A stretch of 41,230 nucleotides of DNA from Crocosphaera sp. Its GTDB lineage: Bacteria; Cyanobacteriota; Cyanobacteriia; Cyanobacteriales; Microcystaceae. The notes beneath the pieces were generated by a model. It had not been told where the DNA came from and made no database searches. It saw only the letters and a list, made by a program, of their open reading frames with translations. Each line of letters begins with the position of its first letter. Positions within the stretch are counted from its first letter, which is position 1. This document shows positions 9,248 through 35,692 of the stretch, piece by piece. The DNA lies in the NCBI GenBank assembly GCA_030065735.1, contig JASJDD010000009.1:1-41230 (forward strand), written 5' to 3'. Position numbers and translations under genes: made by a program.

Positions 9248-12200
9248 TCATTCTAATGGGACTAAACCGTCTTTTTGACTGAAATTCTCTTGTATGGATT
9301 GTTTGAGATAATCTGCCAAAATTTTGGCATTGGGTTCATACAGCATTCGACCATGATTTCCTGGTACCCAAATCACCTTAACGGGTTTTTGGCTGTAGGC
9401 TTGCCATCCCCAATCGGGTTGGTCATAATAGGACATGGCTTGATATTCTTGCACCACAATTTCTTTGGCTTCTTGGGCGCGAAATAGAACAATAGGAGCA
9501 GAAATCTGAAAATTCGGTTGATATAGTGCATAATTGAGGGTGGCTTGTTTCATAACCGTCAGATTCGTTTTGAGTAGGTCAAGGGTAGAATGTTCTGGTA
9601 GGACATTATGACGATATAACACCTCAGCGACGAAATTCCAACGGTTTTGATCATCAGGTTGATTGGCTAATTGTTGATAGTTAAGTCCTAAAGAAATTCC
9701 TTTGATGGCTTCAATTCGTTCAGTCATATTCCAAATCCAATCTAGGTCGCTTCTTTGGGTAATATGATTAGGATTATTGACCAATCCAGTATCAAATATT
9801 CCCAGGAAACTAATGGTTTCTCCTTGTTGTTCCAGTTGAAACGCCATTTCTAAAGCAACCGCACAACCAGACGAATATCCTATTAAAATATAAGGGCCTT
9901 TCTCTTGTTGTTGTTGTAAGGTTGCAATCAGAGAATTAGCATGATCTTCTACTGAGTTGGGTAAGGGATGAGAACCATCTCTTCCTGGGGTTTCCAGTCC
10001 ATAAACAGGACGTTTATCGGCAAAATTAATAGCTAAATCTCGAAAATAGAAGGCGTGTCCATTGGCACCAGCAACACAAAATAATGGGGTTTTCTCTCCC
10101 GAAGTTTGTAAGATTAATAGGTCAGATGTTGTTAGGTTTTCTCCAATTTGTGATAGTTGTTGTGCCAATTGAGCAATGGTCGGATTCTGAAACAAACTGG
10201 TTAGAGGAAGTTTCTGGTTGAAGTTGTTTTGAATTTGGTTGAGGAGTTTAATCCCAAGGATTGAATGACCTCCTAAGTCAAAAAAGTTATCATGAATGCT
10301 AATATTTTTAGAATCGAGTATTGAAGACCAAATTTCCATTAATTGTTGTTCAATGTGATTACGAGGAGCTTGATAAATACGCTGAGATTCAACTTTTAAA
10401 TTAGATAATGCTTGGCGATCAACTTTGCCATTAGGAGTTAAGGGAAATTGCTCTAACCTGATAATTTGGCTAGGGATCATATACTCAGGTAAATAAGCTT
10501 TGATATGGCGTTTTAATTGTTCAGAAAGGTTAGGGATTGCTTCTCCTGTTACATAACCTAATAACTGTTGATTTTTCTCAGTTATTAATAGATTAACAAC
10601 TGCTTCTTTAACAGCAGGATTCTTTAATAAAATAGCTTCAATTTCTCCTAATTCAATGCGAAAACCTCGTAATTTAATTTGATGATCAATGCGTCCTAAA
10701 AATTCCAGATTACCATCGTTTTTCCACTTTGCTAAATCTCCTGTTTTATAAATTCGTTCCGTTTTTCCCAGTAGATTAACTTCAATAAATTTCTCATTAG
10801 TTAAGTCAGGACGGTTTAAATATCCCCTCGCTAAACCAACTCCGGCAATACATAATTCTCCTGGTATTCCTGGGGGTAAAAGTTGATGATTGTCATCTAA
10901 AATATAGACCCGAATGTTATCTATCGGTTTGCCAATAGGGGGATTTTTACCATTCACCTGACACAAGGAAACTGTTGCGGTAACTGTTGTTTCTGTTGGT
11001 CCATAACAGTTGAATAAATGTCTTTTATTTGCCCATTTTTCTACCACCTCAGCAGAACAAGCTTCCCCTCCAACTGTTATATTTCTTAAATAGGATAAGG
11101 TAGCTTTGGGTAATACAGATAAGACTGAAGGGGATAAAAAACTATGAGTGATTTTGTTGCTTTCAAGAAATTCTACTAAGGTTTGAGTTGGTAACAATGT
11201 ATCTTTGTTAGCTAAGTATAAACAGGCCCCATGAATCAAATTTGTGGCGATTTCTCCAATAGATAAATCAAAACTAAAAGACCCAAATTGCAGTAAACAA
11301 CTTTGAGAATGAATATCAAACAATTTACCCCAATTTAAGCTAAGATTAACCAAGGATTGATGTTCAATCATTACCCCTTTCGGTTTTCCAGTTGAACCAG
11401 AAGTATAAATGATATAAGCTAAATTATTGGACTGAATTTTAAGGTTTAAATTATTGCTTGAGTATGATTCAAAGTCAAACTCATCTAAACTAATAACTTG
11501 CTCAAATTTTTCTAATTGAGAAAAATTTGATTTATCTTTAAGAAATTTTTGGGTTAATAATAGTAAAATACCACTGTCTTCTAGGAGAATTTTAATTCTA
11601 GCGTCTGGATAATTGGGATCAATGGGAACATAAGCAGCACCTGCTTTTAAAACCCCTAATAACCCAATAATCATCGCTAATGAGCGTTCGACACAAATAC
11701 CAATTAACGTATCAGGTTCAATAACATAATTTTGTTGTAAATAATGAGCTAATTGATTCGCTTTCTGATTAACTTCTTCATAGGTTAAACTTTGTTCTTC
11801 AAAGATAACTGCTATGTTATTAGGATTTTGTTTAACTTGTTTTTCAAATAACTCAACTAAGGTTTTATCTTGAGGATAATTCTTATTAGTTTGATTCCAG
11901 ATTTTTAATTGTTGTTTATCAGTTTTTGTTAGCCAAGGTATGGTAGCAATTTTTTGCTGTGGATTACTAATAATTTCCTGTAATAAAACTTGCCAACGTT
12001 CTGCCATTTGTTTAATGGTACTAAGTTCAAATAAATCTGTTGCATATTCCCAAGTACAGTTTAATTGACCATCCGATTCTATGGCTAAAAGAGATAAATC
12101 AAACTTAGAAAAGGGATAAGTTGCCTCTACCCATTCAATCTTTAATTTTGGTAAATTTAGCTCACCATTTTCATTATTTTCAACGGCAAACATCACTTGA

Positions 12201-13474
12201 AAAATAGGATTATAACTGAGACTACGAACCGGTTTTAATTGTTCAACAATCAACTCAAAAGGAATATCCTGATGCTGATAAGCGTCTAAACAAATTTGAC
12301 GAGTTTGCTGCAAAAATTCCAGAAATGTTTGCTCTGATTTGATGTAACTTCGCAACACTAAAGTATTAGCAAAAAATCCAATTAATTCTTCAGTTTGAGG
12401 ATGAGAACGATTGGCAATAGGGGAACCTATACAGAGATCATTTTGACGACTATAACGAGAAAGTAATAGATTAAAAATTGTCAATAACAGCATATATAAA
12501 CTGACCCCTTGTTGTTGAGCAAGGGTGTTTAATTGTGCTGTTAATTTAGGGTTTAAGCTGTGACTATAATGAGAACCTTTGTAACTTTGTATGGGGGGAC
12601 GAGAATGATCTGTAGGTAATTCTAATCTTGGTGGTGCATTTTTTAGCTGTTGTTTCCAATAGTTAATTTGAGTTTGTAATACCTCTCCTTGTAACCAATT
12701 TCGTTGCCAATTTGCAAAGTCACTATATTGAATAGATAAAGGTTCAAGGGTGGGTTTTTGTCCTTGAGAAAAAGCTAGATAAGCATGACGTAATTCACGC
12801 ATAAAAATGCCCATAGACCAGCCATCACTGGTAATATGGTGCATATTAATTAGTAAAATAAATTGCTCATCTTTTAACTGTAATAATTTTGTTTTAAATA
12901 AGGGGCCAGTATTAAGATTAAATGATTCTTGAACATAATCATCAATTAATTTTTGAACCGTTATTGACTGAGTATCTTGGTCAAGATTTCTTAAATCTTG
13001 TTGGGTTAAAATCTCAAAATCTTCTATCTTTTTAATGCGAATTTGTGGTTGTCCCTCAATGGTGGGAAAATACATTCTTAAACTTTCATGTCGGTTAAGA
13101 ATATAAGACAAACTCTTATGAAGCGCATCAATATTAAGTTCCCCTTCTAATTGTAAAGAAATGGGCATATTATAGGTAGCATTAGAGCCTTCCATTTGTC
13201 CTAAAAACCAAAGCCTTTGTTGAGCAAAAGAAAGCTGTTTAACCGCATTAGGGGGAAGTTTTGGTATATTTCCTGAAGACGTAACCACGTGATTTTGAGT
13301 TTCTTTGAGAAAGGACAAAATCTCTGTTTTATTAATTTTAACTTGTTGAATTAATTCAGTCGGAATAGTATTTTTTGTCTTGCGAATGCGTAACTTATCT
13401 CCATCAGCAGAAACTCGACATCCGAGTTCCCGCAACTGTCCCATCAAGTCAATAATTTGTTGATTATTACTCAT
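9248..13474 (-). CDS. apnD: Anabaenopeptin-type NRPS, module 6 with thioesterase (docking-C-A-T-TE)
   Basis: Adds the sixth residue and releases the peptide by cyclisation. Order in 1408 residues: a TubC-like N-terminal docking domain (about 1-60, LRELGCRVSADGDKLRIRK); condensation (about 75-500, HHITSDG near 210); adenylation (about 520-1030); carrier (DNFFDLGGHSILG near 1069); thioesterase (about 1115-1400, with the serine in GYSSG near 1198, the Asp in GIFDTG and the His in GNHGRML). The pocket residues read DLGFTGCVTK, identical to those of the first A domain of ApnC and matching the homotyrosine-type code. In anabaenopeptins the thioesterase joins residue 6 to the side-chain amine of Lys2. 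The start codon overlaps the apnC stop as ATGA, with GAGGAAA upstream. Its A domain is strikingly close to that of module 4. Confidence 0.93.
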   Translation of the reverse strand: MSNNQQIIDLMGQLRELGCRVSADGDKLRIRKTKNTIPTELIQQVKINKTEILSFLKETQNHVVTSSGNIPKLPPNAVKQLSFAQQRLWFLGQMEGSNATYNMPISLQLEGELNIDALHKSLSYILNRHESLRMYFPTIEGQPQIRIKKIEDFEILTQQDLRNLDQDTQSITVQKLIDDYVQESFNLNTGPLFKTKLLQLKDEQFILLINMHHITSDGWSMGIFMRELRHAYLAFSQGQKPTLEPLSIQYSDFANWQRNWLQGEVLQTQINYWKQQLKNAPPRLELPTDHSRPPIQSYKGSHYSHSLNPKLTAQLNTLAQQQGVSLYMLLLTIFNLLLSRYSRQNDLCIGSPIANRSHPQTEELIGFFANTLVLRSYIKSEQTFLEFLQQTRQICLDAYQHQDIPFELIVEQLKPVRSLSYNPIFQVMFAVENNENGELNLPKLKIEWVEATYPFSKFDLSLLAIESDGQLNCTWEYATDLFELSTIKQMAERWQVLLQEIISNPQQKIATIPWLTKTDKQQLKIWNQTNKNYPQDKTLVELFEKQVKQNPNNIAVIFEEQSLTYEEVNQKANQLAHYLQQNYVIEPDTLIGICVERSLAMIIGLLGVLKAGAAYVPIDPNYPDARIKILLEDSGILLLLTQKFLKDKSNFSQLEKFEQVISLDEFDFESYSSNNLNLKIQSNNLAYIIYTSGSTGKPKGVMIEHQSLVNLSLNWGKLFDIHSQSCLLQFGSFSFDLSIGEIATNLIHGACLYLANKDTLLPTQTLVEFLESNKITHSFLSPSVLSVLPKATLSYLRNITVGGEACSAEVVEKWANKRHLFNCYGPTETTVTATVSLCQVNGKNPPIGKPIDNIRVYILDDNHQLLPPGIPGELCIAGVGLARGYLNRPDLTNEKFIEVNLLGKTERIYKTGDLAKWKNDGNLEFLGRIDHQIKLRGFRIELGEIEAILLKNPAVKEAVVNLLITEKNQQLLGYVTGEAIPNLSEQLKRHIKAYLPEYMIPSQIIRLEQFPLTPNGKVDRQALSNLKVESQRIYQAPRNHIEQQLMEIWSSILDSKNISIHDNFFDLGGHSILGIKLLNQIQNNFNQKLPLTSLFQNPTIAQLAQQLSQIGENLTTSDLLILQTSGEKTPLFCVAGANGHAFYFRDLAINFADKRPVYGLETPGRDGSHPLPNSVEDHANSLIATLQQQQEKGPYILIGYSSGCAVALEMAFQLEQQGETISFLGIFDTGLVNNPNHITQRSDLDWIWNMTERIEAIKGISLGLNYQQLANQPDDQNRWNFVAEVLYRHNVLPEHSTLDLLKTNLTVMKQATLNYALYQPNFQISAPIVLFRAQEAKEIVVQEYQAMSYYDQPDWGWQAYSQKPVKVIWVPGNHGRMLYEPNAKILADYLKQSIQENFSQKDGLVPLE

Positions 13475-13488
13475 ATGTAAATTTCCTC
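13471..13488 (-). promoter_or_regulatory. apnC/apnD ATGA overlap with ribosome-binding site
   Basis: On the minus strand GAGGAAA (complement of 13482-13488) precedes an ATG (13474-13472) whose last two bases, with the next base, form the apnC stop TGA (13473-13471). This indicates translational coupling of the two synthetases. Confidence 0.75.
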
Positions 13489-16400
13489 TTCGTCTAAATT
13501 TAAAGGTTGAGAATCTTCTGGAGAATTAACCCATAAGCAGGTATCCACATAATTAGCTAATTCCTGTAAAATGGGATATTCAAATAGTTTACTTACGGAT
13601 AATTCGACTTTAAATTCATCCCGAATACGGCCAATTAATTTAGTTGCTAATAGGGAATGTCCTCCTAAGTTAAAGAAATGACTGTTGCGAGAAATTCCAT
13701 CATATTTAAGGAGTTTTGACCACATCGTTGCCAGTAACTGTTCTGTGGAAGTTTGAGGCAATTCAATATTAGTAGAAACGGTGAAAGTTTCAGGGGAAGG
13801 TAATGCTTTTCGGTCTATTTTTCCATTGGGAGTTAGGGGTAATTTCTCCAGTTGGATAAAGTGATGGGGAATCATGTAATCAGGAAGGGTTTTTCCTAAA
13901 AATTCTCGCCACTCTTCTATTAAAATTGGGTCAATAGCATGAGAATTAATGGTCAAAGGTTGGTTAGCATAATTTTGCCAAGACAGGGAAGATAAAGTCT
14001 TTTTCGGAGCAAAACGAGGACGGTTAAAAGGTTGAGTTGTATTCCGTTGAAAGATAACTTGATAAGTGGAAAATTCACTGTCACTATATTGAATAAATGG
14101 GGTATAAGGTAAGTTATCTGTTAAGATTCGTAATGCTTCAGGATTGATACCAGTTTTGACCTGGTTGACAAGGGCTTTTAATTGTTGAAAAGTTCCCTCA
14201 AATTCAGGAATATTTTCTAATAAAAACATCTCTGAAATAAGATGAGTATTGGGAATATTTTGAATTCCCAAACAATCAGGTTTTTGATGCTCTAAAATCC
14301 TCTCAAGCTCTTGTAAATTCAGTTCTTCTGCTTCCCAATCTAACCATTGCCATTCTTTGACAACTGTTTGCGGTTGATCTAGATACAAAATTACATCATA
14401 ACGAAAACGATTCATTTCTGTTTGATTATAACCACGCTTCAGTTCAATTTGCACTTGACTAATACGAGAATATTTGTGTTTAAGAGCAATAAAGAAATCT
14501 GTATCAATCAGTAGTTCTTCTTCTGTAGCAATACTATGTTTAATTCGTTGACGTAATTCTTGAATCGATACATTTTCATCCGCAGAATAGAATTCAACGG
14601 CGGTATGAAAAGCTTCTAATAATTTCAAGTTTCTCACATCTCCAATTAATATTTTTCCCCCTGTTTGTGTTGCATTAATTACCCCATCTAATACTTGTAA
14701 GAAGTAATCAACCGAAGGAAAATATTGAATCACAGAATTGAGAATGATTAAGTCATAACGTTGAGGTTCAATTCCTTCAAACTGATTAGCTGGACTTTGT
14801 TTTAAGGTAACTTTTTGCTCAAGATTTTGTGACGTTAAATGTTGTTGAACATACTGTAACGCTTTGCTAGAAAAATCTGTCCCTAAAAAGGTTTGACAAT
14901 GGGAGGCAATTTTAAACAATAACATCCCTGTTCCACAGCCAATTTCCCAAACTTGTTTAGGGTCTAATTCTAAAATTTGTTCAACAGTTTTATCCCGCCA
15001 TTCTTCCATCTCTGTCTGAGAATAAAGTTGTCCTGTATAGCTATTCTTCCAACCTGTAAAATTAAGTGTTGGGTCATCAAGTTCAGTATCTTGTTCATAG
15101 TAATTATCGTCAAAAATGTTCTGCCAGAGTTCAACTTGTTCCTCTTGTAATGCTTGGGTTTCTGAGGAGTTTTGTATGTCATTAGGAACAATATAAGCTA
15201 CTAAACTCTGATCAAATTCTGTATCTTCTCGTAAGATAACAACAGCTTCTTTAATACTATGATGTTCAGTTAATGACGTTTCAATTTCTCCTAATTCAAT
15301 GCGAAAGCCTCGTAATTTTATTTGATGATCTATCCGTCCTAAAAAGTCAAGATTTCCATCATTTCTCCACTTGGCTAAGTCTCCTGTTTTATAAATTCGT
15401 TCGGGTTTTCCCCATAGATTAACTTCAATAAATTTCTCATTAGTTAAGTTCGTACGATTCAAATATCCTCTAGCTAAACCAACTCCTGCAATACATAATT
15501 CTCCTGGTATTCCTGGGGGTAAAAGTTGCTTATTTTCATCTAAAATATAGACACGAATATTCTCTAAGGGTTTACCGATGAAGGGGTTTTTACCATTGGG
15601 ATGACATGGTGCGATTGTGGCAACAATTGTCGATTCTGTGGGACCATAACCATTGAATAAATTTCCTCCTTGTCCCCATTCTTTAACCAATTCAACCGAA
15701 ACTGCTTCACCCCCAACACCGATGTATTGTAAAGCTGGTAAAAGTCGATTAGGTACTACAGATAATAGAGAAGGCGATAAAATAATATGAGAAATCTGAT
15801 GCTCAGATAAAAAATCAACTAATGTGTGACCCGATAATAATATATCTTGGTTAATTAAATATAAACAAGCTCCTGTGACCAAAGTCGTAGCAATTTCAAT
15901 CACAGACATATCAAAACTAAAAGAAGCAATTTGTAGCCATCGACTTTGCTGATTAATTTTGGATTTTTTAGCCATTGCTAATGTAATATTAGTTAGCCCT
16001 CGATGCTCAATCATTACGCCTTTGGGTTGTCCTGTTGAACCAGAAGTATAAATTACATAAGCTAAATTATTTGGTTTGGTTTTGGTAGTTAAATTATTGC
16101 TTGATAACGTTTCAAAGTTAGATTGATCTAAACAAATGACCTCACAGGAATTTTTTAATTGACATAGGGGTAATTTTTCCTGAATAAAGCTTTGGGTTAA
16201 CAAGACCGATATCTCAGTATCTTCTAAAATAAAGCGAATCCGATCTTCGGGATAGTCAGGGTCAATGGGTACATAAGCAGCCCCTGCTTTGAGAACCCCT
16301 AATAACCCGATAATCATTTCCAAAGAGCGATCAATACAAATCCCAATTAAGGTATCAGGTTTTATTTGATAATGTTGCTGTAGATAATGAGCTAATTGGT

Positions 16401-21183: not shown

Positions 21184-21236
21184 AAGATTATTGGTTCAAT
21201 TTTTAGGAACAAAAAGCAAAACAATCATTCACAGTA

Positions 21237-24200
21237 TTACAATAGTAATTGTTGGGTTGCTTCCTCCTCTGATAATTCATCAATTTCCTCTAAAATTTGA
21301 GATAATTCATCACCTTGTGCTTGTTCAAGTTGTTGAATAGTAACTTTTTCTCCCAGTTTAGCAATGGTAGGATTTTCAAATAAATAGCGGAAAGGAAACT
21401 CAATTTCAAAGATTTCTTTGAGTCGAGAAATCACTTGAGTGGCCAGCAAAGAATGACCTCCTAATTCAAAAAAATTATCGTAGATTCCCACTTTGTTTAA
21501 TCCTAAAACTTCCGTCCAAATTGTTGCTAATTCTTCTTCTGTAGAAGTTCGAGGAGGAACAAACTCTACCCTAAAATTACTCTGAGAATTATCAGGAATA
21601 GGTAAAGCGCGACGATTAATTTTTCCGTTGGGAGTTAAAGGAAATTGGTCTAAAAATACGAAAGCATTAGGAATCATATAATTAGGCAACTTTTCTGTTA
21701 GATAATTTCTCACATCATGGGAGGTTAATTGATGATTATGGGGAATACAATAAGCAACGATAGATTTGTTTCCAGGATTATCTTCTCGTATAATAACAGT
21801 CGCTTCTTTGATATCAGAATGATTCGTTAAAATGGTTTCAATTTCCCCTAATTCAATGCGAAATCCTCTGACTTTAACTTGATTATCAATTCGTCCTAAA
21901 AATTCTAGATTTCCATCGGTCAGACGACGGACTAAATCTCCTGTTTTATAAAGGGTATCTCCTGGAACAAAAGGGTTAGCAATAAACTTTTCACGGGTTA
22001 AAGTTGGTTGATTCAAATAACCTCTTGCTACACTGGAACCTCCGATATAAATTTCCCCCGAAACCCCTAGAGGAACTCGTTTGAAATTCCTATCTAATAA
22101 GTAAACTTTTCTATCTACAATGGGTTTACCAATGGGAATAGACGAAAGATTTTTATCAACTTGTTTAGGAATAGGATAACAACAGGAAAATACTGTACAT
22201 TCTGAAGGTCCATAACCATTAACAATTTGGGTTTTTGGTAACAATTCTACAGCACGACGAACATGATCAACTGATAAACTTTCTCCTCCTGTTATCAGTT
22301 GTTTCACTCCCAATAAAGCTTCTGGTATAGTATCAATAACTAAATTGAAAAATGCAGAGGTTAACCAAAGAATATTGATTCTTTTTTCTTTGATAATGTT
22401 ACTTAATTCTTCTGGGGTCGGAATATTCCCTGGATAAAGCACACAACACCCTCCATAAAGCAAAGGTGGCCATAATTCCAAGGTTAAAGCATCCCAAGAA
22501 ATTGATGAATGTTGTAGCCAAATATTGTTAGGATTAAGGTCAATATAATCAACCCCAAACATAAACCCTATAAAGCTACGATGAGGTACTTCTGTTCCTT
22601 TTGGTTTTCCTGTTGAACCGGATGTATAGATGATGTAAGCTAAGTGATCAACAGTAATATTAACTGCTAAATTCTCAGAAGAATATTGACTAATTTTTTC
22701 CCATTCTGACTCAATATCAATAACCTGTTTAATATTATCAACAGGTAGTTGCTCTAAAAGATGATTTTGGCTTAAAAGAAGAGAACATTCAACATCTTCG
22801 AGCATAAAAGCTAGTCTTTCAGAAGGATAAGCTGGATCTAAAGGAACATAAGTCCCTCCTGCTTTTAAAATGGCTAAAATAGCAATAACCATTAAAGGCG
22901 ATCGCTCAATACAAACCCCTATTTTCTCTTCTAATTTAATGCCTAACGATTGTAAATAATGGGCTAATTGATTCGCTTTTTGGTTTAATTCTTGATAAGT
23001 TAATTGTTCATTTTTATAAACAATAGCAACAGCTTCGGGTGTTTGATTAACCTGTTTTTCAAACAAGTGATGAACACATTGATAATTAATGGTTTTGATT
23101 TGAGCATCATTTTGATTTTCTTCTAAAATTAATGCTGCTTCTTCTGCTTTTGTTAATAATGAAAATTGAGAGAGACGCTGTTCTGGATCATTGGCCATTC
23201 CTTCTAATAGGGTTTGCAAATGTCCGATCATTCTTTCAATGGTTTCTGGTTGAAAACGCCGAATATCATAGACAATTCTTCCTGATAATTCTTCATTAGG
23301 AATGATGACAACTGTCAGAGGATAATTCGTTCTTTCTAAACAACGAATATTCGCAATTTCTAAGGTTTTTTTAGTGTCATTTTTATCTGATTTAACAGGA
23401 TAATTTTCAAACACTAAAATGCTTTCAAACAAAGGCATTTCAGGAGGAATATCACTATATTTTTGAATTTCAGCTAAAGAATAATAACTATAAGGTTCCT
23501 GCTCAAATTGTTGACCCTGTAATTCTTTTAACCAAGGAATTAATGCCTCTGTGTCAGACACTTTTAAACGTACAGGCAAGGTATTAATAAATAACCCAAC
23601 CATTTGCTCAACATTAGGAAAATTACTAGGACGGCCTGATACAGTTGCTCCAAAAATAATATCCGTTTCTCCACTGTAGCGAGAAAGCAGTAAACCCCAC
23701 GCCCCTTGAACTAAATTATTAAGGGTTAAATGGTGTTTTTGTGCCAATAATTGTAGTTTTTCTGTTGCCTCAATAGATAGCTTAAAAGGAATTTCTTGAT
23801 AAGCTTCCTTTTGAGTGTTATTCTTGATTAATTGATCAACAATTAAAGGGGTAGTAGCTTCAATTCCTTGTAATTTTTTTTGCCAAAATTCTTTAGCTTC
23901 AAAAGGATTTTGTTGCTGTAACCAACTAATATATTCCCGATAAAGAGGACAGGGTTTTAACTGTAAAGAGTCTCCTTGATTATAACTTTCATATAAGTCA
24001 AAAACCTCTTGCAGCACAATCTGCATTGACCAACCATCTAATAAGATATGATGATGACTCCAAATAAACTGATAATTGTCAACCCCTAACTGAATTAAAG
24101 TAAAGCGCATTAAAGGAGCTTGATCAATGTCAATTCCTAAACTGCGATCGCTTTTCAAAAACGTCTCTAACGCTTCTTTTTGTTGATTTTCAGGCCAATG

Positions 24201-24473
24201 TTGCCAGTCATGAATCATCCAAGATAATTCCACTTGTTGACTGACCATTTGTAAGGGTTTTTCGATTTCTTCCCAATGAAAAGAACTGCGTAAAACGGGA
24301 TGTCTCGCAACAATAGTTTGCCAAGCTTTCTGAAAAAGAGATATATTTAATTGCCCTTTCAACTGACAAACTAATTGCTCAAAATAAGCTTCAGATTCAG
24401 GAGAATAAAGGGTATGAAATAACATCCCTTCTTGCATAGGAGAAAGCGCATAAAGGTCTTCAATGTTGTTCAT
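21237..24473 (-). CDS. apnB: Anabaenopeptin-type NRPS, module 3 (C-A-T)
   Basis: A single module of 1078 residues adding the third residue. The C domain starts at once (LYALSPMQEGMLFHTLY) with HHILLDG near residue 141. SPMQEGMLFH at the start is typical of C domains that accept a D-configured donor, which fits the epimerisation domain ending the upstream protein. The A domain (core SWDALTLELWPPL near 658) gives the pocket code DALWIGGVFK, close to the Val code DAFWIGGTFK. Position 3 of anabaenopeptins is usually Val or Ile. The carrier serine is in GGHSLLATQ near 1006. The acidic C-terminus (EEIDELSEEEATQ) looks like a docking tail for the helical start of ApnC. The start is 4 nt after the apnA stop, with AGAGG inside the apnA end, so translation is probably coupled. 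Confidence 0.92.
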   Translation of the reverse strand: MNNIEDLYALSPMQEGMLFHTLYSPESEAYFEQLVCQLKGQLNISLFQKAWQTIVARHPVLRSSFHWEEIEKPLQMVSQQVELSWMIHDWQHWPENQQKEALETFLKSDRSLGIDIDQAPLMRFTLIQLGVDNYQFIWSHHHILLDGWSMQIVLQEVFDLYESYNQGDSLQLKPCPLYREYISWLQQQNPFEAKEFWQKKLQGIEATTPLIVDQLIKNNTQKEAYQEIPFKLSIEATEKLQLLAQKHHLTLNNLVQGAWGLLLSRYSGETDIIFGATVSGRPSNFPNVEQMVGLFINTLPVRLKVSDTEALIPWLKELQGQQFEQEPYSYYSLAEIQKYSDIPPEMPLFESILVFENYPVKSDKNDTKKTLEIANIRCLERTNYPLTVVIIPNEELSGRIVYDIRRFQPETIERMIGHLQTLLEGMANDPEQRLSQFSLLTKAEEAALILEENQNDAQIKTINYQCVHHLFEKQVNQTPEAVAIVYKNEQLTYQELNQKANQLAHYLQSLGIKLEEKIGVCIERSPLMVIAILAILKAGGTYVPLDPAYPSERLAFMLEDVECSLLLSQNHLLEQLPVDNIKQVIDIESEWEKISQYSSENLAVNITVDHLAYIIYTSGSTGKPKGTEVPHRSFIGFMFGVDYIDLNPNNIWLQHSSISWDALTLELWPPLLYGGCCVLYPGNIPTPEELSNIIKEKRINILWLTSAFFNLVIDTIPEALLGVKQLITGGESLSVDHVRRAVELLPKTQIVNGYGPSECTVFSCCYPIPKQVDKNLSSIPIGKPIVDRKVYLLDRNFKRVPLGVSGEIYIGGSSVARGYLNQPTLTREKFIANPFVPGDTLYKTGDLVRRLTDGNLEFLGRIDNQVKVRGFRIELGEIETILTNHSDIKEATVIIREDNPGNKSIVAYCIPHNHQLTSHDVRNYLTEKLPNYMIPNAFVFLDQFPLTPNGKINRRALPIPDNSQSNFRVEFVPPRTSTEEELATIWTEVLGLNKVGIYDNFFELGGHSLLATQVISRLKEIFEIEFPFRYLFENPTIAKLGEKVTIQQLEQAQGDELSQILEEIDELSEEEATQQLLL

Positions 24474-24477
24474 CTAA

Positions 24478-27400
24478 TTACCTCTTAATCTGTTTCTTTT
24501 TAGCTACTTTGGACATAAATTTATCAAGCTGTTCTTGACTCACTTGGGCCGCAGAAAAGTCAGAAGGAGTATAACCCTTATTCTCTGATGATTGACAATG
24601 TTCAATGAGGGTTTTTAAGCTGTCCATGAAATCATTAGCCAATTGTTCAATGGTGTCTTGCTGATGAATATCTTGACTATAAACAAACTGCATTTCTAGT
24701 TTTTCTGAGCGAATTAAGCCACTAATTTCTAATAAATGACTTCGGTTTCCTAATGCACTTCGGTCTGACTTCCATTGGAGAACTTTTCCTAAACCCCCTG
24801 ATGCAGATAAGACCTGATCAAATTGACCTAAATAATTAAAGCTAACTTCAGCTTTTCCTAAGTCTTGAAATGAGTTTTTAGCCTCCCCATCATTAGACAA
24901 ATATTTCAAGATACCATAACCAATACCATGATTTGGGAGACGACGTAATTGTTCTTTAACTGATTTTAAGGTTTCGGGTATTTGTCCTGTTTTACTCTTT
25001 TCTAATTTGACAGGAAATAGTGTGGTAAACCAACCAATAGTACGGGATAAATCTATTTCTTCAAATAAATCTTCTCGTCCATGACCTTCTAAGTCAACCA
25101 CTAACGTATTTTGCTGTGTCCATTGACTGAAACTTTCTACTAATGCAGTCAGTAAAATGTCGTTAATTTGGGTGTTATAAACCTTGGGAACATCTTGCAA
25201 TAATCCAGTGGTTTCTTCTACAGTCAGACATCGATGAATCGCTTTAGCTGAACTTAATTGATTACTTTTTGGTTGCAAGGGGTAATCAATCGGTAAACTA
25301 GCAATTTTGTCTTGTAATTGAGATAACCAATAGTCTTTTTCTTGCTTCAATTTATCCGATTGACTGTAGCTAATTAACTGGTTTGACCAATCTTGAAATG
25401 AGGTAGTTTTCAAGGGGAATTGAATGGCTTTTTCTTGATTAATTTGTTGGTAAGCTGTGACGAAATCTTCTAGTAAAATGCGCCAAGAGATTCCATCTAC
25501 TGCTAAGTGATGAATTACTATCAAAAGTTGATTGGGTTGGTCATTTCCTAAGTTAAATAAGACAAATTTAACTATCTCTCCCCTAGTTAGATTGAGACTA
25601 CTCTGAATCTCTTGATCTTTAGTATTAATTACTTTTTCCTGATCTTCGTCAGATAGGTTAGATAAATCAATAACTGTTACAGGAATTGTATCTTTTGTTC
25701 CATCATTTATCTGGGTAAACGTGCCATTTTCTTCAATATAATGGAACCGTAAAGCATCATGATGATTTAATAATGCTTGGATAACTTGTTGCAATAATTC
25801 TGCGTTTAATGAGGAAGGAACTTCAATTAAAGCTGATTGATTAAAGAAATTAACATCAGGTAAATTTTGCTCAAATAACCAATGTTGAATCGGGGTTAAA
25901 GGAACATTTCCCATTACTAATTCCTGGTTAGCTTTTATTTGTTTTCCTGTTCCCACAACTGTCGCTAATTCAGCAATACTTTGATACTGAAAGAGTTGTT
26001 TAGGAGTCAATTGTAACCCGATTTGATTTGCTCTCGAAATCATCTGAATACTAACAATCGAGTCCCCTCCTAGTTCAAAGAAATTATCATGAATACTGAC
26101 TTTTTCCAGTCTTAAAACTTCAGCCCAAATTTTTGCTAATTGTTCTTCTATTGGGTTTTGAGGTGGGGTAAAATCACTGCTTAATTGTTGGATGATTTGG
26201 GGAATCGGTAACGCACGATGATCGACTTTTCCATTAGGAGTTATGGGGATTTCTTCGACAAAAATGAAGGCGGACGGAACCATATAAGGCGGTAATTTTT
26301 GTTTCAAATAATGACGAATTTCCTCAAGTTCTACTTGATCTTGATTCCCGACTAAATAAGCGACTAATCGTTTATTTCCTGGACTATCTTCCCTAGCAAT
26401 GACAACTGATTGCTTAATCAATTGATGCTGATTTAAAATCGTTTCAATCTCTGTTAATTCAATGCGGAAACCTCGAATTTTTACTTGAGAATCAATCCGT
26501 CCTAAAAAGTCTAAATTGCCATCCCATTTATACCTGACTAAATCCCCTGTTTTGTAGAGTTTTTCTTCGGGTTTAAAGGGATTATTGATAAATTTCTCTT
26601 GGGTTAATTTGGGTTGGTTTAAGTAACCCCTTGCTATCCCTAAACCACCGATATGCAATTCTCCAGGAATCCCAATAGGAAGGGGTTGTAAATATTGATC
26701 TAAAATATAGACTTCAGTATTATTAATGGGTTTACCGATGGGAATTTCTGGTTGATTAATTAAGGTTTCTGGGAGAGAGTATAAAGTGGATACAACTGTT
26801 GCTTCTGTGGGACCATAACTATTAACTAATTGAGGATAATAACCCACATATTCTTGCCACATTCTTACCCGTTCCGGTAAAATTCTTTCTCCTCCTAAAA
26901 TAACCAGTCTTAATGATTCAGGTAACTTCAAATTATCTTGGATTATTTCACTGACTAATAAATGCCAATAAGCGGTGGGTAAATCCCAAATGGTTACTTC
27001 TTTTTGACGAGATTCTTCTATAAATGCTGAGACAGATTTCATCATTTCTTCTGTTCTCAGCACTAAGGTTCCGCCACAACTTAAACAGGGATAAATTTCC
27101 TCTGCTGCTGCATCAAAATTAATGGAAGCAAACTGTAAAACCCTATCTTGTTGGGTTATCTGATAATTTTCAATCGCACTTTGGGTAAAGTTAATTAAGG
27201 ATTGATGTTCGATCAATACTCCTTTCGGTTGTCCAGTTGATCCCGATGTATAAATAACATAACAAAGATTATTTTTCTTAATTAAACTCTCAATATTTTG
27301 CTTACGTTGCTGACTAATAATTTCTTGTTGACTATCTAAACAAACCCAATTTATTTCCTGATTATCTTTACCATTGCTCCATTTTTCTAAGGTCACAACA

Positions 27401-30400
27401 AGAGAAACTTGAGCATCGTTAACCATATAGCTTAATCTCTCTTCTGGATAAGCAGGATCTAAGGGTAAATAAGCACCTCCTGCTTTAAGAATTGCTAATA
27501 ATCCGATGAGCATCTCTAGGGAACGTTCAAGATAAATTCCCACTAAATCATCGGGTTTAACCCCTAATTGTTGGAGATAATGTGCCAGTTGATTCGCCTT
27601 TTCATTTAACTGTTGATACGTCAGTTGTTGCCCTTCAAAAATAACGGCGATCGCTGCTGGTGTCTTGTTAACTTGTTCTTCAAATAGTTGATGAATCGCT
27701 GTTATATCTTCATACTCAGTTTGTGTCTGATTCCAGTCAACTAATAACTGCTGTTTTTGGGGTTCTGTTAACAAAGAATATTGAGAAAGCTTTTGATTAG
27801 GATTGGCTAAAATACCTTTTAACAACGTTTGATAATCCTCGACCATTCTTTCCATCGTAGACTCATCAAACAGGTCAGTATTATACTCCCAAACCATCGT
27901 AATTCCTTCTGTTTCTATCCCCTTACTCTCCCCAGTAGAATCTCGTCCCACTCGTTGTTCAGAACGAGGAATGACCACGATATCAAGATCAAATTTAGCA
28001 GATTCATTAGTCAAAGCATCATTAGGTTTAATGGTCAATTCAGGTAAGATTAAATTGGGTAATTGAGCATCATGAAAACTAAACATTACCTGGAATAAAG
28101 GGTTATAACTTAAGTGACGAATGGGTTTTAAAACTTCCACCACTTTATCAAAGGGTAAATCTTCGTTGGCAAATCCTTCTAACGTTACTTGACGTACTTG
28201 TTTTAATAAGTCTGTAAAGGTGGGATTTCCTGACACATCGGTACGAAGAACAATATTATTAACAATCATCCCGATCAGTCCCTCTGTCTCCTTTAACCGT
28301 CGGTTAGCGACCCCTGAACCAATGCAGATATCTTCTTGTCCTGTATAGCGGTAAACTTGCGTTACAAAGGCCGCAAACATACTCATAAACAATGTCACCC
28401 CTTGTTGACGACCCAACTTTCTCAGGGGTTTGCAGATATCCAAAGGCAGATCCACTCGTAACCTTCCCCCTCCGTAGGTTTGTTCTGTGGGACGAGGGCG
28501 ATCGTAGGGTAATTCTAGTAGGGGCGGAATTCCGGTTAATTGTTGATGCCAATAGTTCAACTGTTCTTGGGCTGCTGCGGTTTTTGTCCATTCTCGCTGC
28601 CAATGGGCAAAGTCCACAAACTGTAAACTGGGTTCACTCAAAGGGGAAGGTTTACCTTGAGAAAAAGCTTGATAAAGGGTTATTAATTCTTTTAAAAAGA
28701 TATTAAATGACCAACCATCATGAACCATATGATGTTCGACATGAATTAAAACCCATTCTTGTTCATTGAGTTTTAATAATGTCCAACGAACTAAAGGTAA
28801 CTGACTAATATCAAAGGGTTTTTTAACCGTACTATCCGTTAGTTTTTCTACTTCTATTTCTTGTTGATCTTGAGGAAGATGTTGTAAATCAATAATGGGT
28901 AATTTAACCGGTTTTGGGGGATGAATTACCTGTATTAGTTTTCCTTCTACAGCAGGAAATGTGGTGCGGAAAATTTCGTGACGGCGCAGAATTTCACTGA
29001 GAGTTTTTTCGAGTACAGGAATATCTAAAAAGCCATTGATGCGTAAACGTTCTTGGAACTGATACGCCGTCATTGAAGGGGCTAGTTTTTCTAGAAAATA
29101 CACCCTTTCCTGTGCAAAAGATACGGGTAATTCTCCTTCTCTAGAAATAGGCTTGATTTTTTGTGAAAAAGAGAAATTTTTATCTAATTTATCTTGCTGA
29201 TTAATAACTAGACTTAATCCCTGAATGGTCGGATTTGTAAAGAGTTCTTGAAAGGAAATTTCAACTTGAAAAATATCTCGAATTCGGGATAAAATTTTAG
29301 TGGCAATTAAAGAATGTCCCCCAAGTTCAAAAAAGTCATCATCAATTCCCACTGTGTCTAAGCCAAATACCTGTTTCCAAATGTTAGCTAATTTTTCTTC
29401 TTGCTCATTTCTAGGGGCAATAAAGCTTGTGTTTAGGTTTGCTCTTATATAGTTTGCTTTGGGTAGAGCCTGACGATCTACTTTTCCATTGGCATTTATG
29501 GGTAACTTGTCTAAGATAACCAAAGCTTTAGGAATCATATAGCTAGGTAGCTTATCATGGAGAAATGTTTGTAGATTTTTGGTTAAATTTTCTTGAGGTA
29601 AATGGGGAACAATATAAGCAACTAAAGTTTTATTGCCCAGGGTATCTTCTTGAGCAATAACAATAGTTTGAGCAACTTTCTCATGTTGGAGTAAAGTGTT
29701 TTCAATTTCTCCTAATTCTACTCGAAAACCATTGATTTTAACTTGGTGATCAATGCGCCCTAAATATTCCAAATTACCATCTTCTAAATATCGTCCCCAA
29801 TCTCCAGTTTTATATAATCTTTGCCCAGGGTTAAACGGATCTTGAATAAACTTTTCAGCAGTTAATTCAGGACGGTTTAAATAACCCCTAGCAACCGTAT
29901 CTCCTCCAATATATATTTCTCCTTCTGTCTTAGTGGGAACGTTTTTTAAGTGTTTATCTAAAACGTAAACTTGAATTTTGTCCCCTAAAGTTTTTCCAAT
30001 GGGAATTTCTGTTTGTTTTGGTTGATTTTCTGTTAGTTGAGACAGAGAAAGTAATGTTACTATAACTGTTGTTTCTGTTGGTCCATAACTATTAATCAGC
30101 TTGGGAAAATGTCCCACATAGTCCAACCACATTCTTACCAGTTCCGGTTGAACTCTTTCTCCTCCAATAATGATTAATCGTAACGTTTGAGGTAAAGCAA
30201 GTTGACTATTAACTAACTCATTAACCAATAAATGCCAATAGGCAGTGGGAAGACTCCACCAGGTTATTTGCCACTCTTGACATTTTCTGAGAAAGACAGG
30301 GATAGAACTGATCATTTCCTCTGTCCTTAATACCATAGCCCCTCCACAACAAAGGGTAGGATAGATGTCTTCTACAGCCATATCAAAACTGATAGAGGAA

Positions 30401-30981
30401 AATTGCAGGGTGCGATCGCTGGCAGACATCTTATATTGTTCTATAGCCAATTGAGTAAAATTGACCAAGGAATGATGTTCAATCATCACCCCTTTGGGTT
30501 TTCCCGTTGATCCTGAGGTGTAGATGACGTAGGCTAAGTTATGGGGTTCTACGGTATTGACCAAGTTATCGGATGAATAATGGTTGATGGCTTCCCCTTG
30601 ACTATCTAAACAGATAATTTTGCCTTGATAATCGGAAATAACACTCTTAAAATCTTCTTTACTGACTAAGAGGTCAATTTGAGCATCTTGCACCATATAG
30701 CTCAATCTTTCACTGGGATAGGTCGGATCAAGGGGAACATAAGCCCCTCCTGCTTTGAGAATACCCAGTAACCCAATGATCATTTCTAAGGAACGATCGA
30801 GACACAACCCCACTAACGTCTCTGACTTAACTCCTAATGTTTGTAAATAGTGAGCCAGTTGATTTGCTTTGCTATTTAATTCTTTATAGGTCAATTGCCC
30901 TTTTTCAGATATGACTGCAACCGCATTAGGATTCTGTTTGACCTGGGTTTCAAATAACTGGTGAATACAAGCATTTAACAT
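24478..30981 (-). CDS. apnA: Anabaenopeptin-type NRPS, starter module and module 2 with epimerase (A-T-C-A-T-E)
   Basis: A 2167-residue initiating synthetase. Domains: A1 from the first residues (FDMAVED near 197); T1 (DDFFELGGHSLIA near 554); C2 (HVEHHMVHDGWS near 752); A2 (FDAAAEE near 1289); T2 with the pre-epimerase form GGDSIVSIQ near 1639; epimerisation domain with HHLAVDG near 1824 and EGHGRED near 1965. Pocket codes: A1 DMESIGSVIK, A2 DAEDIGSVVK. Both keep Glu at position 239 and resemble the Lys code DAESIGSVCK. Lys2 is invariant and D-configured in anabaenopeptins, which fits A2 plus E. Residue 1 is joined to Lys2 through a ureido bridge in that family, so C2 is the candidate ureido-forming domain (inference). 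There is one starter A domain only. Start ATG with AAGGAT upstream; the 191-bp leader carries a GAAGTCAGAAG repeat fragment. Confidence 0.93.
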   Translation of the reverse strand: MLNACIHQLFETQVKQNPNAVAVISEKGQLTYKELNSKANQLAHYLQTLGVKSETLVGLCLDRSLEMIIGLLGILKAGGAYVPLDPTYPSERLSYMVQDAQIDLLVSKEDFKSVISDYQGKIICLDSQGEAINHYSSDNLVNTVEPHNLAYVIYTSGSTGKPKGVMIEHHSLVNFTQLAIEQYKMSASDRTLQFSSISFDMAVEDIYPTLCCGGAMVLRTEEMISSIPVFLRKCQEWQITWWSLPTAYWHLLVNELVNSQLALPQTLRLIIIGGERVQPELVRMWLDYVGHFPKLINSYGPTETTVIVTLLSLSQLTENQPKQTEIPIGKTLGDKIQVYVLDKHLKNVPTKTEGEIYIGGDTVARGYLNRPELTAEKFIQDPFNPGQRLYKTGDWGRYLEDGNLEYLGRIDHQVKINGFRVELGEIENTLLQHEKVAQTIVIAQEDTLGNKTLVAYIVPHLPQENLTKNLQTFLHDKLPSYMIPKALVILDKLPINANGKVDRQALPKANYIRANLNTSFIAPRNEQEEKLANIWKQVFGLDTVGIDDDFFELGGHSLIATKILSRIRDIFQVEISFQELFTNPTIQGLSLVINQQDKLDKNFSFSQKIKPISREGELPVSFAQERVYFLEKLAPSMTAYQFQERLRINGFLDIPVLEKTLSEILRRHEIFRTTFPAVEGKLIQVIHPPKPVKLPIIDLQHLPQDQQEIEVEKLTDSTVKKPFDISQLPLVRWTLLKLNEQEWVLIHVEHHMVHDGWSFNIFLKELITLYQAFSQGKPSPLSEPSLQFVDFAHWQREWTKTAAAQEQLNYWHQQLTGIPPLLELPYDRPRPTEQTYGGGRLRVDLPLDICKPLRKLGRQQGVTLFMSMFAAFVTQVYRYTGQEDICIGSGVANRRLKETEGLIGMIVNNIVLRTDVSGNPTFTDLLKQVRQVTLEGFANEDLPFDKVVEVLKPIRHLSYNPLFQVMFSFHDAQLPNLILPELTIKPNDALTNESAKFDLDIVVIPRSEQRVGRDSTGESKGIETEGITMVWEYNTDLFDESTMERMVEDYQTLLKGILANPNQKLSQYSLLTEPQKQQLLVDWNQTQTEYEDITAIHQLFEEQVNKTPAAIAVIFEGQQLTYQQLNEKANQLAHYLQQLGVKPDDLVGIYLERSLEMLIGLLAILKAGGAYLPLDPAYPEERLSYMVNDAQVSLVVTLEKWSNGKDNQEINWVCLDSQQEIISQQRKQNIESLIKKNNLCYVIYTSGSTGQPKGVLIEHQSLINFTQSAIENYQITQQDRVLQFASINFDAAAEEIYPCLSCGGTLVLRTEEMMKSVSAFIEESRQKEVTIWDLPTAYWHLLVSEIIQDNLKLPESLRLVILGGERILPERVRMWQEYVGYYPQLVNSYGPTEATVVSTLYSLPETLINQPEIPIGKPINNTEVYILDQYLQPLPIGIPGELHIGGLGIARGYLNQPKLTQEKFINNPFKPEEKLYKTGDLVRYKWDGNLDFLGRIDSQVKIRGFRIELTEIETILNQHQLIKQSVVIAREDSPGNKRLVAYLVGNQDQVELEEIRHYLKQKLPPYMVPSAFIFVEEIPITPNGKVDHRALPIPQIIQQLSSDFTPPQNPIEEQLAKIWAEVLRLEKVSIHDNFFELGGDSIVSIQMISRANQIGLQLTPKQLFQYQSIAELATVVGTGKQIKANQELVMGNVPLTPIQHWLFEQNLPDVNFFNQSALIEVPSSLNAELLQQVIQALLNHHDALRFHYIEENGTFTQINDGTKDTIPVTVIDLSNLSDEDQEKVINTKDQEIQSSLNLTRGEIVKFVLFNLGNDQPNQLLIVIHHLAVDGISWRILLEDFVTAYQQINQEKAIQFPLKTTSFQDWSNQLISYSQSDKLKQEKDYWLSQLQDKIASLPIDYPLQPKSNQLSSAKAIHRCLTVEETTGLLQDVPKVYNTQINDILLTALVESFSQWTQQNTLVVDLEGHGREDLFEEIDLSRTIGWFTTLFPVKLEKSKTGQIPETLKSVKEQLRRLPNHGIGYGILKYLSNDGEAKNSFQDLGKAEVSFNYLGQFDQVLSASGGLGKVLQWKSDRSALGNRSHLLEISGLIRSEKLEMQFVYSQDIHQQDTIEQLANDFMDSLKTLIEHCQSSENKGYTPSDFSAAQVSQEQLDKFMSKVAKKKQIKR

Positions 30982-31172: not shown

Positions 31173-31571
31173 TTATTCTTCGATAATTTCTACCTGTCTC
31201 GGTTCCTTTCTTTCTTGTGCTTCCGCTTGATGATCAGGATCAAGTAAGGTCTTAAGTTTGAGTTTGAGATTATCCGAAATTGGCAGGTCTTTTAGTTCTT
31301 TAATGAGCTTGGTTAAGGATTCTGATTTAGTTCGTTCTTTATACACTGTCACTAACAGGGATTCGATGCCATAACCCGATAAAACATCCCCAACCGCAGT
31401 CATTAAACCGAGGATAGCTAATCCTCCCATCAGTCCAAACGGACCGCCTAAAGCAACAATAGAAGTGATTAACCCATAGGTTCCTCCCATGCCACCTGAA
31501 GTGGCCATCATAAGAGCAAGTAGAACCCCAGGTAATCCTAAAGAAGCCAGTTTTTTTGCTACTTCATCCAT
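31173..31571 (-). CDS. Small Gly-rich two-helix membrane protein, copy 1
   Basis: A 132-residue protein of unknown function. It begins MDEVAKKLASLGLPGV, then has two hydrophobic, glycine-rich stretches (about residues 12-42 with SGGMGG and VALGGPFG, and about 45-66 with GGLAILGLM). A charged helical tail follows (KERTKSESLTKLIKELKDLP, then SDNLKLKLKTLLD) and an acidic end. No signal peptide or enzymatic motif is seen. A paralogue of about 60 percent identity over 110 residues is encoded at 38668-39024. It lies between hphCD and apnA on the same strand, with GAGAGGA upstream of the ATG. The glycine packing suggests a small helical hairpin that could oligomerise in a membrane; that is inference. 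I recall similar short cyanobacterial proteins of unknown role but assign none. Confidence 0.75.
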   Translation of the reverse strand: MDEVAKKLASLGLPGVLLALMMATSGGMGGTYGLITSIVALGGPFGLMGGLAILGLMTAVGDVLSGYGIESLLVTVYKERTKSESLTKLIKELKDLPISDNLKLKLKTLLDPDHQAEAQERKEPRQVEIIEE

Positions 31572-33412: not shown

Positions 33413-33415
33413 TTA

Positions 33416-35648: not shown

Positions 35649-35650
35649 TT

Positions 35651-35659
35651 TTCCCTCTC
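35651..35659 (-). promoter_or_regulatory. hphA ribosome-binding site
   Basis: GAGAGGGAA on the minus strand ends 2 nt before the ATG at 35648, with the GAGAGG core at normal spacing. It decides for this start over the in-frame ATG 33 bases upstream. Confidence 0.7.
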
Positions 35660-35692
35660 GTTGCTCAGCTTGAATTATCAATAAAAGCAGTC

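What the first reader, a model, noticed from the sequence alone, without database searches (positions are those of the whole stretch)
9248..30981. Complete anabaenopeptin-type assembly line with a readable product
Domain order over four proteins (A-T-C-A-T-E, C-A-T, C-A-T-C-A-NMT-T, C-A-T-TE) is the ApnA-ApnD order known from Planktothrix and relatives. Pocket residues read by eye predict X1-CO-[D-Lys2-Val3-Hty4-NMeX5-Hty6]. The combination of homotyrosine at both 4 and 6 with an unusual position 5 would make a specific, testable congener.
Basis: partly seen in the sequence, partly recalled or inferred. Interest (0 to 1): 0.65.

Follow-up and report, generated by a model that had tools for sequence, protein, structure and literature searches.

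The report
Anabaenopeptin cluster with unusual fifth residue
A cyanobacterium carries a complete, ordinary-looking gene cluster for an anabaenopeptin (a small ring-shaped enzyme inhibitor), but its fifth building block is probably an unusually long aromatic amino acid, which can be checked by mass spectrometry.

Summary
In detail: 9248-30981 (minus strand) encodes four intact NRPSs in the ApnA-ApnD domain order. Aligned codes support Lys2, Val/Ile3, Hty4 and Hty6; A1 stays open within the Arg/Tyr/Lys type. Two things change. Hty at both 4 and 6 is already published (AP SA12, Nostoc CENA352, NZ857). And the fifth pocket, DMIIGGGIV, occurs at position 5 in none of 21 other apn clusters. Its residues T208+I278, found together in 9 of 77 aromatic-type domains, mark a pocket class otherwise seen mainly at position 4 in Nostoc calcicola and relatives; N. 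calcicola is reported to make anabaenopeptins with 5-phenylnorvaline/6-phenylnorleucine there. Best guess: X1-CO-[D-Lys-Val/Ile-Hty-NMe-X5-Hty] with a chain-extended homo-aromatic X5 (about 50%), a pompanopeptin-B-like ring. The system also includes hphA-hphB-hphCD (31700-35681), a HisC-like aminotransferase and a small conserved membrane-type protein. All is sequence inference; no peptide was measured. A new variant of a known kind.

The parts
24478..30981 (-). apnA: A1-T-C(ureido)-A2-T-E; A1 code DMESIGSVI (Arg/Tyr/Lys type), A2 DAEDIGSVV (Lys)
   Evidence: A1 best solved relative 4d4g ApnA A1
27742..29139 (-). ureido-type condensation domain of module 2
   Evidence: place; 55-84% to the apn-type group, then 49% and less for the next listed C domains
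24544..25911 (-). epimerization domain (D-Lys2)
   Evidence: (place)
21237..24473 (-). apnB: C-A-T; A3 code DALWIGGVF (Val/Ile)
   Evidence: same code in Planktothrix (G278) and M. aeruginosa LEGE 91341 (G023)
13471..21183 (-). apnC: C-A-T-C-A-MT-T; A4 DLGFTGCVT (Hty), A5 DMIIGGGIV
15460..16491 (-). A5 adenylation core (P0003 residues 1565-1908): unusual pocket with T208 and I278
14614..14958 (-). methyltransferase domain of module 5 (taken as N-methyltransferase)
9248..13474 (-). apnD: TubC docking-C-A-T-TE; A6 DLGFTGCVT (Hty)
7445..9196 (-). apnE: ABC exporter (PF06472 + ABC_tran)
   Evidence: 75-76% to the ABC gene after apnD in G023/G013
6195..7274 (-). HisC-like aminotransferase, proposed aromatic transaminase for homotyrosine
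31173..31571 (-). small conserved hydrophobic (membrane-type) protein between hphCD and apnA
31700..33412 (-). hphCD (fused aconitase-type dehydratase)
33416..34492 (-). hphB (isopropylmalate dehydrogenase-like)
34476..35681 (-). hphA (benzylmalate synthase-like); F and I at the positions taken by motif as N. punctiforme 157 and 186
35693..38440 (-). LamG-LamG-patatin protein, near hph in several apt clusters; role unknown

Best explanation
A complete anabaenopeptin assembly line with its own homo-amino-acid supply. HphA-HphCD-HphB lengthen the side chain of the 2-oxo acid of Tyr/Phe, and an aminotransferase (probably the HisC-like gene at 6195-7274) makes the amino acid. ApnA loads X1 (Arg/Tyr/Lys type) and Lys, links them N-to-N by a ureido bond and epimerises Lys. 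ApnB adds Val/Ile. ApnC adds Hty, then an N-methylated residue X5. ApnD adds Hty, and its TE closes the ring on the Lys side chain. X5 is most likely a chain-extended homo-aromatic amino acid (5-phenylnorvaline, 6-phenylnorleucine or their para-hydroxy forms dihomotyrosine/Ahpha), which gives a pompanopeptin-B-like ring X1-CO-[D-Lys-Val/Ile-Hty-NMe-X5-Hty]. Shown by sequence: gene content, domain order, codes, kinship. Inferred from the known families: every chemical step and every substrate.
For: Domains and codes. Nostoc calcicola FACHB-3891 (a contig of 411,093 bases, as G643:C23) has AptA1 A1 DVEDIGAIA, AptA2 A1 DAFFLGVTF, A3 DGLWLGGVF, A4 DIAISGGVV, A5 DATKVGEVG (Asn), A6 DAWTVAGVC (Phe). 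That is the layout of AP SA1/SA7/SA8 (Arg or Ile; Ile; PNV or PNL; Asn; Phe), which PMC5015106 reports from N. calcicola CBT158, leaving DIAISGGVV for PNV/PNL. A5 core: the two best hits, 64-65%, are this class. T208 and I278 occur together in 9 of 77 aromatic-type domains; of the other 68 none has T208 and one has I278. Core-only tree of 38 chosen rows: A5, the Phormidium A6 and seven Nostoc-type A4 form one clade, 96/92. 7 of 9 code positions changed against 127 of 422 positions elsewhere, p=0.005. HphA: the position taken as 186 is V/I/F in the 6 HphAs that go with this pocket class, I in the window, L/M/Y in 27 others. Gene order patatin-hphA-hphB-hphCD-small protein-aptA is shared with three of the seven position-4 carriers, L148, L150, L156.
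Against: In the 77-row core-only tree A5 is unresolved, and in the whole-domain tree it is sister to the MeHty-type A5 of G013/G023 (100/100); grouping its core with the resident Hty cores is not rejected (p-AU 0.19). The hit ranking is not clean: an ordinary Hty-type A6 (Nostoc JL34, 61%) and Phe-type A6 domains (61%) rank among the class members, which range from 59 to 65%. Several shared residues (206G, 207L, 211T, 230A, loss of W214) also occur in Phe/Trp-type domains. By code letters A5 shares 4 of 9 with DIAIVGGVG but also 4 of 9 with the Phe-type DAWTIGGIC. Ile at 239 is larger than the Ala/Gly of the class. The PNV/PNL link rests on another strain of N. calcicola. Published HphA mutants D157N and M186F did not gain activity on the extended substrate (PMC12961565). 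The six HphAs form one clade, the window HphA is outside it, and of the 14 best-separating columns only one (195) puts it with that clade alone; it is not faster-evolving than expected. The Phormidium carrier (G502) has an ordinary L there. The other four carriers at position 4 (L157, L159, L160, L171) do not show the shared gene order in the DNA held.
Confidence: 0.5

Rival explanations
1. Same anabaenopeptin cluster, but A5 still loads homotyrosine (or another common aromatic residue such as Phe): the pocket has drifted or been exchanged without reaching an extended substrate, giving for example X1-CO-[D-Lys-Val-Hty-NMeHty-Hty].
For: Whole-domain tree: A5 is sister to the DLGFTGCVT A5 domains of G013 and G023 (100/100). 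AP 908/915 carry HTyr5. Joining the A5 core to the resident Hty cores is not rejected. HphA of the window is nearest to G013, G023 and Planktothrix.
Against: 7 of 9 code positions differ from those sisters; the 34 Hty-type domains all have L236, C322 and G230, which A5 has lost.
Confidence: 0.2
2. Same cluster, but A5 loads a different bulky residue such as Trp, or an aliphatic one (Leu/Ile/Met), N-methylated.
For: Gly at 299 and 301 and several non-code residues are shared with the Brasilonema position-4 domains DASFGGCVN; other Brasilonema strains are reported with Trp4 (PMC4483662), and N-methyl-Trp-type residues are known at position 5 of sponge peptides (PMC8402340). Ile at 239 narrows the pocket floor.
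Against: The two Trp-type domains have F278, C322 and V208; A5 shares 3 of 9 code letters with them and 5 of 9 with DIAIGGGVS and DIAISGGVV.
Confidence: 0.25
3. The cluster is not expressed, or the contig is a misassembled mosaic, and the predicted peptide is never made.
For: The genome is a 318-contig draft of 79.7% completeness; apt products were nearly undetectable in N. edaphicum (PMC9564503).
Against: The four NRPS ORFs are intact; repeats between modules are only 69-84% alike; module order equals that of clusters in complete genomes.
Confidence: 0.05

Closest known systems
apn cluster of Planktothrix (P. rubescens PCC7821)
   Same: Four-protein domain order; A2, A3 and A4 codes alike (DAEDIGSVV, DALWIGGVF, DLGFTGCVT); ureido C domain 84% identical; ABC exporter
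   Different: A5 is Ala (DLFNNALTY), A6 Phe (DAWTIAGVC); hph genes divergent from apnA; no aminotransferase, patatin or small membrane gene found in the 46 kb fetched
apn cluster of Microcystis aeruginosa LEGE 91341 (G023) and of unnamed G013
   Same: ABC exporter followed by the same HisC-like aminotransferase (68%); same family
   Different: A4 DLGCAGCVV, A5 DLGFTGCVT, A6 DAFFLGVTF (by inference the Hty-MeHty-Ile layout of AP 908/915); window A5 and A6 differ
apt cluster of Nostoc calcicola FACHB-3891 (species of AP SA1/SA7/SA8, PNV/PNL)
   Same: The T208/I278/G301/G322 pocket class; gene order patatin-hphA-hphB-hphCD-small protein-aptA; HphA with Ile at the position taken as 186
   Different: There the pocket sits in module 4, not 5; A5 Asn, A6 Phe; two aptA genes
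Pompanopeptin B (Lyngbya confervoides)
   Same: N-Me-Ahpha at position 5 (PMC8402340); Hty where AP I/J have Leu/Phe (PMC2901827), which I read as position 6 (AP I/J structures recalled)
   Different: No gene cluster for it turned up in the listings; exocyclic residue may differ
Anabaenopeptin SA12 / Phe-CO[Lys-Val-Hty-MeAla-Hty] / NZ857
   Same: Hty at both 4 and 6
   Different: Position 5 is Gly (SA12) or Ala (CENA352), position 1 Phe in both; for NZ857 these were not given in what was read

Membership tests
anabaenopeptin synthetase (apn/apt) | Six modules on four proteins in the order A-T-C-A-T-E / C-A-T / C-A-T-C-A-MT-T / C-A-T-TE | tested here: met
anabaenopeptin synthetase (apn/apt) | Module-2 condensation domain of the ureido group | tested here: met
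   55-84% to the group, the next listed C domains 49% and less
anabaenopeptin synthetase (apn/apt) | Lys-type A2 with epimerization domain | tested here: met
   DAEDIGSVV, identical to Planktothrix A2
anabaenopeptin synthetase (apn/apt) | hph genes near the cluster | tested here: met
anabaenopeptin synthetase (apn/apt) | Product with ureido-linked D-Lys | not testable with these tools
   needs LC-MS/MS or NMR
chain-extended (PNV/PNL) A-domain class, proposed here | T208 and I278 with G301/G322 | tested here: met
   9 of 77 domains, the window A5 among them
chain-extended (PNV/PNL) A-domain class, proposed here | Pocket core in one clade with the Nostoc calcicola A4 | tested here: inconclusive
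   96/92 in 38 chosen rows; unresolved in 77 rows
chain-extended (PNV/PNL) A-domain class, proposed here | Activates PNV/PNL or p-hydroxy analogues | not testable with these tools
   no enzyme assay
HphABCD homologation pathway | HphA, HphB and fused HphCD adjacent | tested here: met
   (hphB 82.5%, hphCD 85.4%, hphA 72.1% to M. aeruginosa LEGE 91341)
extended-chain HphA clade of Nostoc | HphA sequence groups with that clade | tested here: not met
   Window HphA is nearest to G013/G023/Planktothrix. Of the 14 best-separating columns it has that clade's residue at 195, 56, 69, 366 and 324 (only 195 exclusively) and not at 22, 80, 86, 89, 98, 105, 316, 318, 336

The most novel reading that the evidence does not exclude
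Cyanobacterial adenylation domains carry a readable pocket class (T208, I278, G301, G322, mostly a bulky 236) for chain-extended homo-aromatic amino acids. It can sit in module 4, 5 or 6, spread by exchange of the A-core, and it goes together with changes in the substrate pocket of the partner HphA. The window would then be a first genetic candidate for a pompanopeptin-B-type ring (Hty4, N-Me-extended-5, Hty6), as far as the listings show.
Probability: 0.4. Interest if true: 0.6.

Novelty: new variant of a known kind. Interest (0 to 1): 0.42.

Why it matters
Anabaenopeptins inhibit carboxypeptidases, TAFIa and phosphatases and are common in freshwater. What decides how long a homologated side chain becomes is open: HphA mutants showed at most slight activity on the extended substrate (PMC12961565, passages), and extended residues are isobaric with methylated ones in MS (PMC10381486, passages). 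A pocket class that predicts chain-extended residues would let genomes be read for them and would give A-domain and HphA pairs to test.

Tried and rejected
The claim that Hty at both 4 and 6 is new: rejected, published. The idea that the extended pocket arose three separate times: the whole-domain tree asks for three changes, but the core-only trees are compatible with one pocket-bearing core spread by A-core exchange (such swaps are the main finding of PMC8097286, passages), so I do not claim convergence. Counting all residues shared with the Nostoc class as evidence: a first count was not significant (p=0.11), a fuller pocket list gave p=0.035, and 8 of 56 changes inside residues 205-335 against 0 of 81 outside gave p=0.0006; but A5 matches only 12 of the 57 class-diagnostic columns, fewer than several Phe- and Trp-type domains do, and most of the shared residues occur in those too, so only T208 and I278 are used. 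The 34-position pocket list is recalled. Accelerated evolution of the window HphA: not seen. Naming the genus of the window: not achieved; only the family is known to be that of Microcystis, by matching contig length. Promoter and terminator scans equalled shuffles; no Rfam hit, no tRNA. The first genome-contig scan with ApnC confirmed no relative. Structure prediction was not used, since its stated output holds no coordinates for a pocket measurement.
Full report
WHAT IS THERE. Four intact ORFs on the minus strand fill 9248-30981 exactly. Pfam gives the domains of A-T-C-A-T-E, C-A-T, C-A-T-C-A-MT-T and docking-C-A-T-TE. The module-2 C domain belongs to the ureido group: in 386 genomes of the phylum the listed matches fall into a group at 55-84% identity and then drop to 49% and less. 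Upstream lie hphCD, hphB and hphA (31700-35681), a 132-aa hydrophobic protein (31173-31571) and a LamG-patatin protein (35693-38440); downstream an ABC exporter and a HisC-like aminotransferase.

CODES. Numbering was checked against PDB 1amu and codes read from alignments: A1 DMESIGSVI, A2 DAEDIGSVV, A3 DALWIGGVF, A4 and A6 DLGFTGCVT, A5 DMIIGGGIV. A2, A3 and A4 equal those of Planktothrix rubescens PCC7821 (G278; chromosome record of 5,464,396 bases in both). A1 is close to the solved ApnA A1 4d4g, but its code is not among the 21 Planktothrix genotypes of PMC5311044 (section read); genotypes with E239 load Arg, alone or with Tyr, Lys and others, so X1 is left open within that set.

POSITION 6. 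A Hty-type code at 6 is not rare: of 20 other clusters with a readable ApnD A domain, five have a DLG/DLA-F type code there (G399, G076, G254, G654, G663). Peptides with Hty at 4 and 6 are published (PMC5015106 table; PMC4483662 table; PMC8402340 section).

POSITION 5. In 21 other apn clusters annotated the fifth code is DLFNNALTY (10), DATKVGEVG (3), DILQLGLIW or DILQCGLIW (3), DLGFTGCVT (2), DAWTVAAVC (2), DLGFSGCVT (1); never DMIIGGGIV. With the A5 core as query, the best hits are 59% (the cluster's own A4) and 58% in 50 family genomes, and 62% in 388 order genomes drawn from a larger group. In 24 genomes reached through named records the two best are 64 and 65%, position-4 domains with codes DIAIGGGVS and DIAIVGGVG; the other class members score 59-62%, mixed with Hty- and Phe-type A6 domains at 60-61%. 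The class was seen at position 4 in Nostoc calcicola FACHB-3891, Desmonostoc geniculatum HA4340-LM1, Nostoc foliaceum FACHB-393, Nostoc sp. FACHB-973, WHI and CHAB 5824, and Dendronalium CENA369 (seven), and as DMAIIGGIC at position 6 in Phormidium sp. LEGE 05292.

WHAT THE CLASS LOADS. PMC5015106 (passages and table 1) reports from Nostoc calcicola CBT158 the anabaenopeptins SA1, SA7 and SA8: Arg or Ile at 1, Ile at 3, 5-phenylnorvaline or 6-phenylnorleucine at 4, Asn at 5, Phe at 6. The sequenced N. calcicola has A domains that fit this: a basic and an Ile-type starter, a Val/Ile-type A3, an Asn-type A5 and a Phe-type A6, leaving DIAISGGVV for PNV/PNL. It is another strain of the species, so this is a strong inference and not a proof. 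PMC4483662 (passages) lists a Desmonostoc with Hph and +14 and +28 forms at 4 beside NMeAsn and Phe, assigned there as methyl- and ethyl-Hph; these are isobaric with PNV and PNL (my reading; PMC10381486, passages, makes the same point for MeHty and dihomotyrosine).

HOW FIRMLY A5 BELONGS TO IT. Thr208 and Ile278 occur together in 9 of 77 aromatic-type A domains, the eight listed above and the window A5; of the other 68, none has Thr208 and one has Ile278. Among 140 A domains the pair occurs in 4. Most other shared residues occur in Phe- or Trp-type domains too and carry no weight. The whole-domain tree puts A5 beside the MeHty-type A5 of G013/G023 (100/100). Its pocket core lies outside the clade of eight resident-type Hty cores (100/100) and is unresolved in 77 rows. 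In 38 chosen rows the core joins the Nostoc class and the Phormidium domain (96/92), although joining the resident cores is not rejected (p-AU 0.19). The simplest reading is an exchanged A-core in an otherwise orthologous module, as described in general by PMC8097286 (passages). Seven of 9 code positions changed against 127 of 422 positions elsewhere.

THE PARTNER ENZYME. In HphA the residue two before CDTVG, which I take by motif for the published position 186 (the N. punctiforme sequence itself was not aligned), is V, I or F in the six HphAs accompanying the class (one of the seven position-4 carriers, WHI, gave no HphA), I in the window, and L, M or Y in 27 others; the window's kin have Y, and K where the window has F at the position taken for 157. 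N. foliaceum and CHAB 5824 carry a second, ordinary HphA as well. Against this: the six form one clade and the window is outside it; the Phormidium carrier has L; published D157N and M186F mutants gained nothing on the extended substrate (PMC12961565, passages); the window HphA is not accelerated. The window and the clusters L148, L150 and L156 share the order patatin-hphA-hphB-hphCD-small protein-aptA; the other four position-4 carriers do not show it in the DNA held, most Nostocales clusters have hphA after aptD, and Planktothrix/Microcystis have hph divergent from apnA.

THE AMINOTRANSFERASE. The homologation pathway begins and ends with an aromatic aminotransferase (PMC12961565, passages). 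The gene at 6195-7274 is 29.7% identical to the genome's other HisC. In 50 genomes of the family it has relatives at 68% only in G023 and G013, which are also the only others of the 50 with apn-type A domains at 55% or more to A5; three further genomes have 47-53% matches. No paper in the library holds both 'anabaenopeptin' and 'histidinol-phosphate aminotransferase'. I infer that it makes Hty; this is untested.

DISTRIBUTION. Eight other genomes of the same genus show no HphA orthologue (best matches 32-34%; two of the eight are below 90% complete), so the cluster is patchy in the genus, by gain or by loss. The family is that of Microcystis (G023:C246 and a M. aeruginosa LEGE 91341 contig are both 34,363 bases).

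VERDICT. A complete anabaenopeptin cluster, known in kind. The new and testable part is the fifth residue: most likely a chain-extended homo-aromatic amino acid between two homotyrosines, the ring type of pompanopeptin B (PMC8402340 section; PMC2901827 passages; position 6 is my reading of its comparison with anabaenopeptins I and J).

Noticed in passing
window 6195-7274: HisC-like aminotransferase directly after the exporter; at 68% identity it is found only in the two other apn carriers among 50 genomes of the family.
   Followed up: partly
window 31173-31571 and 38668-39024: Two copies of a small Gly-rich hydrophobic protein without Pfam or NCBIfam match; relatives sit between hphCD and aptA in many Nostocales clusters, several times in pairs, and copies exist in two genomes of the genus that lack hphA.
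   Followed up: partly
window 35693-38440: LamG-LamG-patatin protein next to hphA; patatin relatives stand beside hphB/hphA in several Nostoc-type apt clusters. NCBIfam CBASS phospholipase scores 180.6, below its cut-off of 200.
   Followed up: partly
L271 (G679) and L272 (G680): A second hphA between aptC and aptD in Nostoc foliaceum FACHB-393 and Nostoc sp. CHAB 5824, beside the ordinary one; both clusters have the T208/I278-type A4 pocket.
   Followed up: partly
L155: An aptA-like gene with ureido C domain (63%) on a contig of a Candidatus Methylumidiphilus MAG: transfer or binning error.
   Followed up: no
L172: Cyanobacteria bacterium SBLK: the first A domain of the aptC-like gene reads DAESIGSIV, a basic-type pocket at position 4.
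   Followed up: no
L179, L180: Ureido-type C domains at 51-52% in Ktedonosporobacter and Dictyobacter, between A domains without the Lys-type code.
   Followed up: no
L116 (G502): Phormidium sp. LEGE 05292 aptC has a Gly-type A5 code and no methyltransferase was detected in its 2208-residue frame.
   Followed up: no
window 39339-41084: A second ABC transporter (PF06472) on the plus strand beyond the patatin gene; similar ABC genes lie near several other apn clusters.
   Followed up: no
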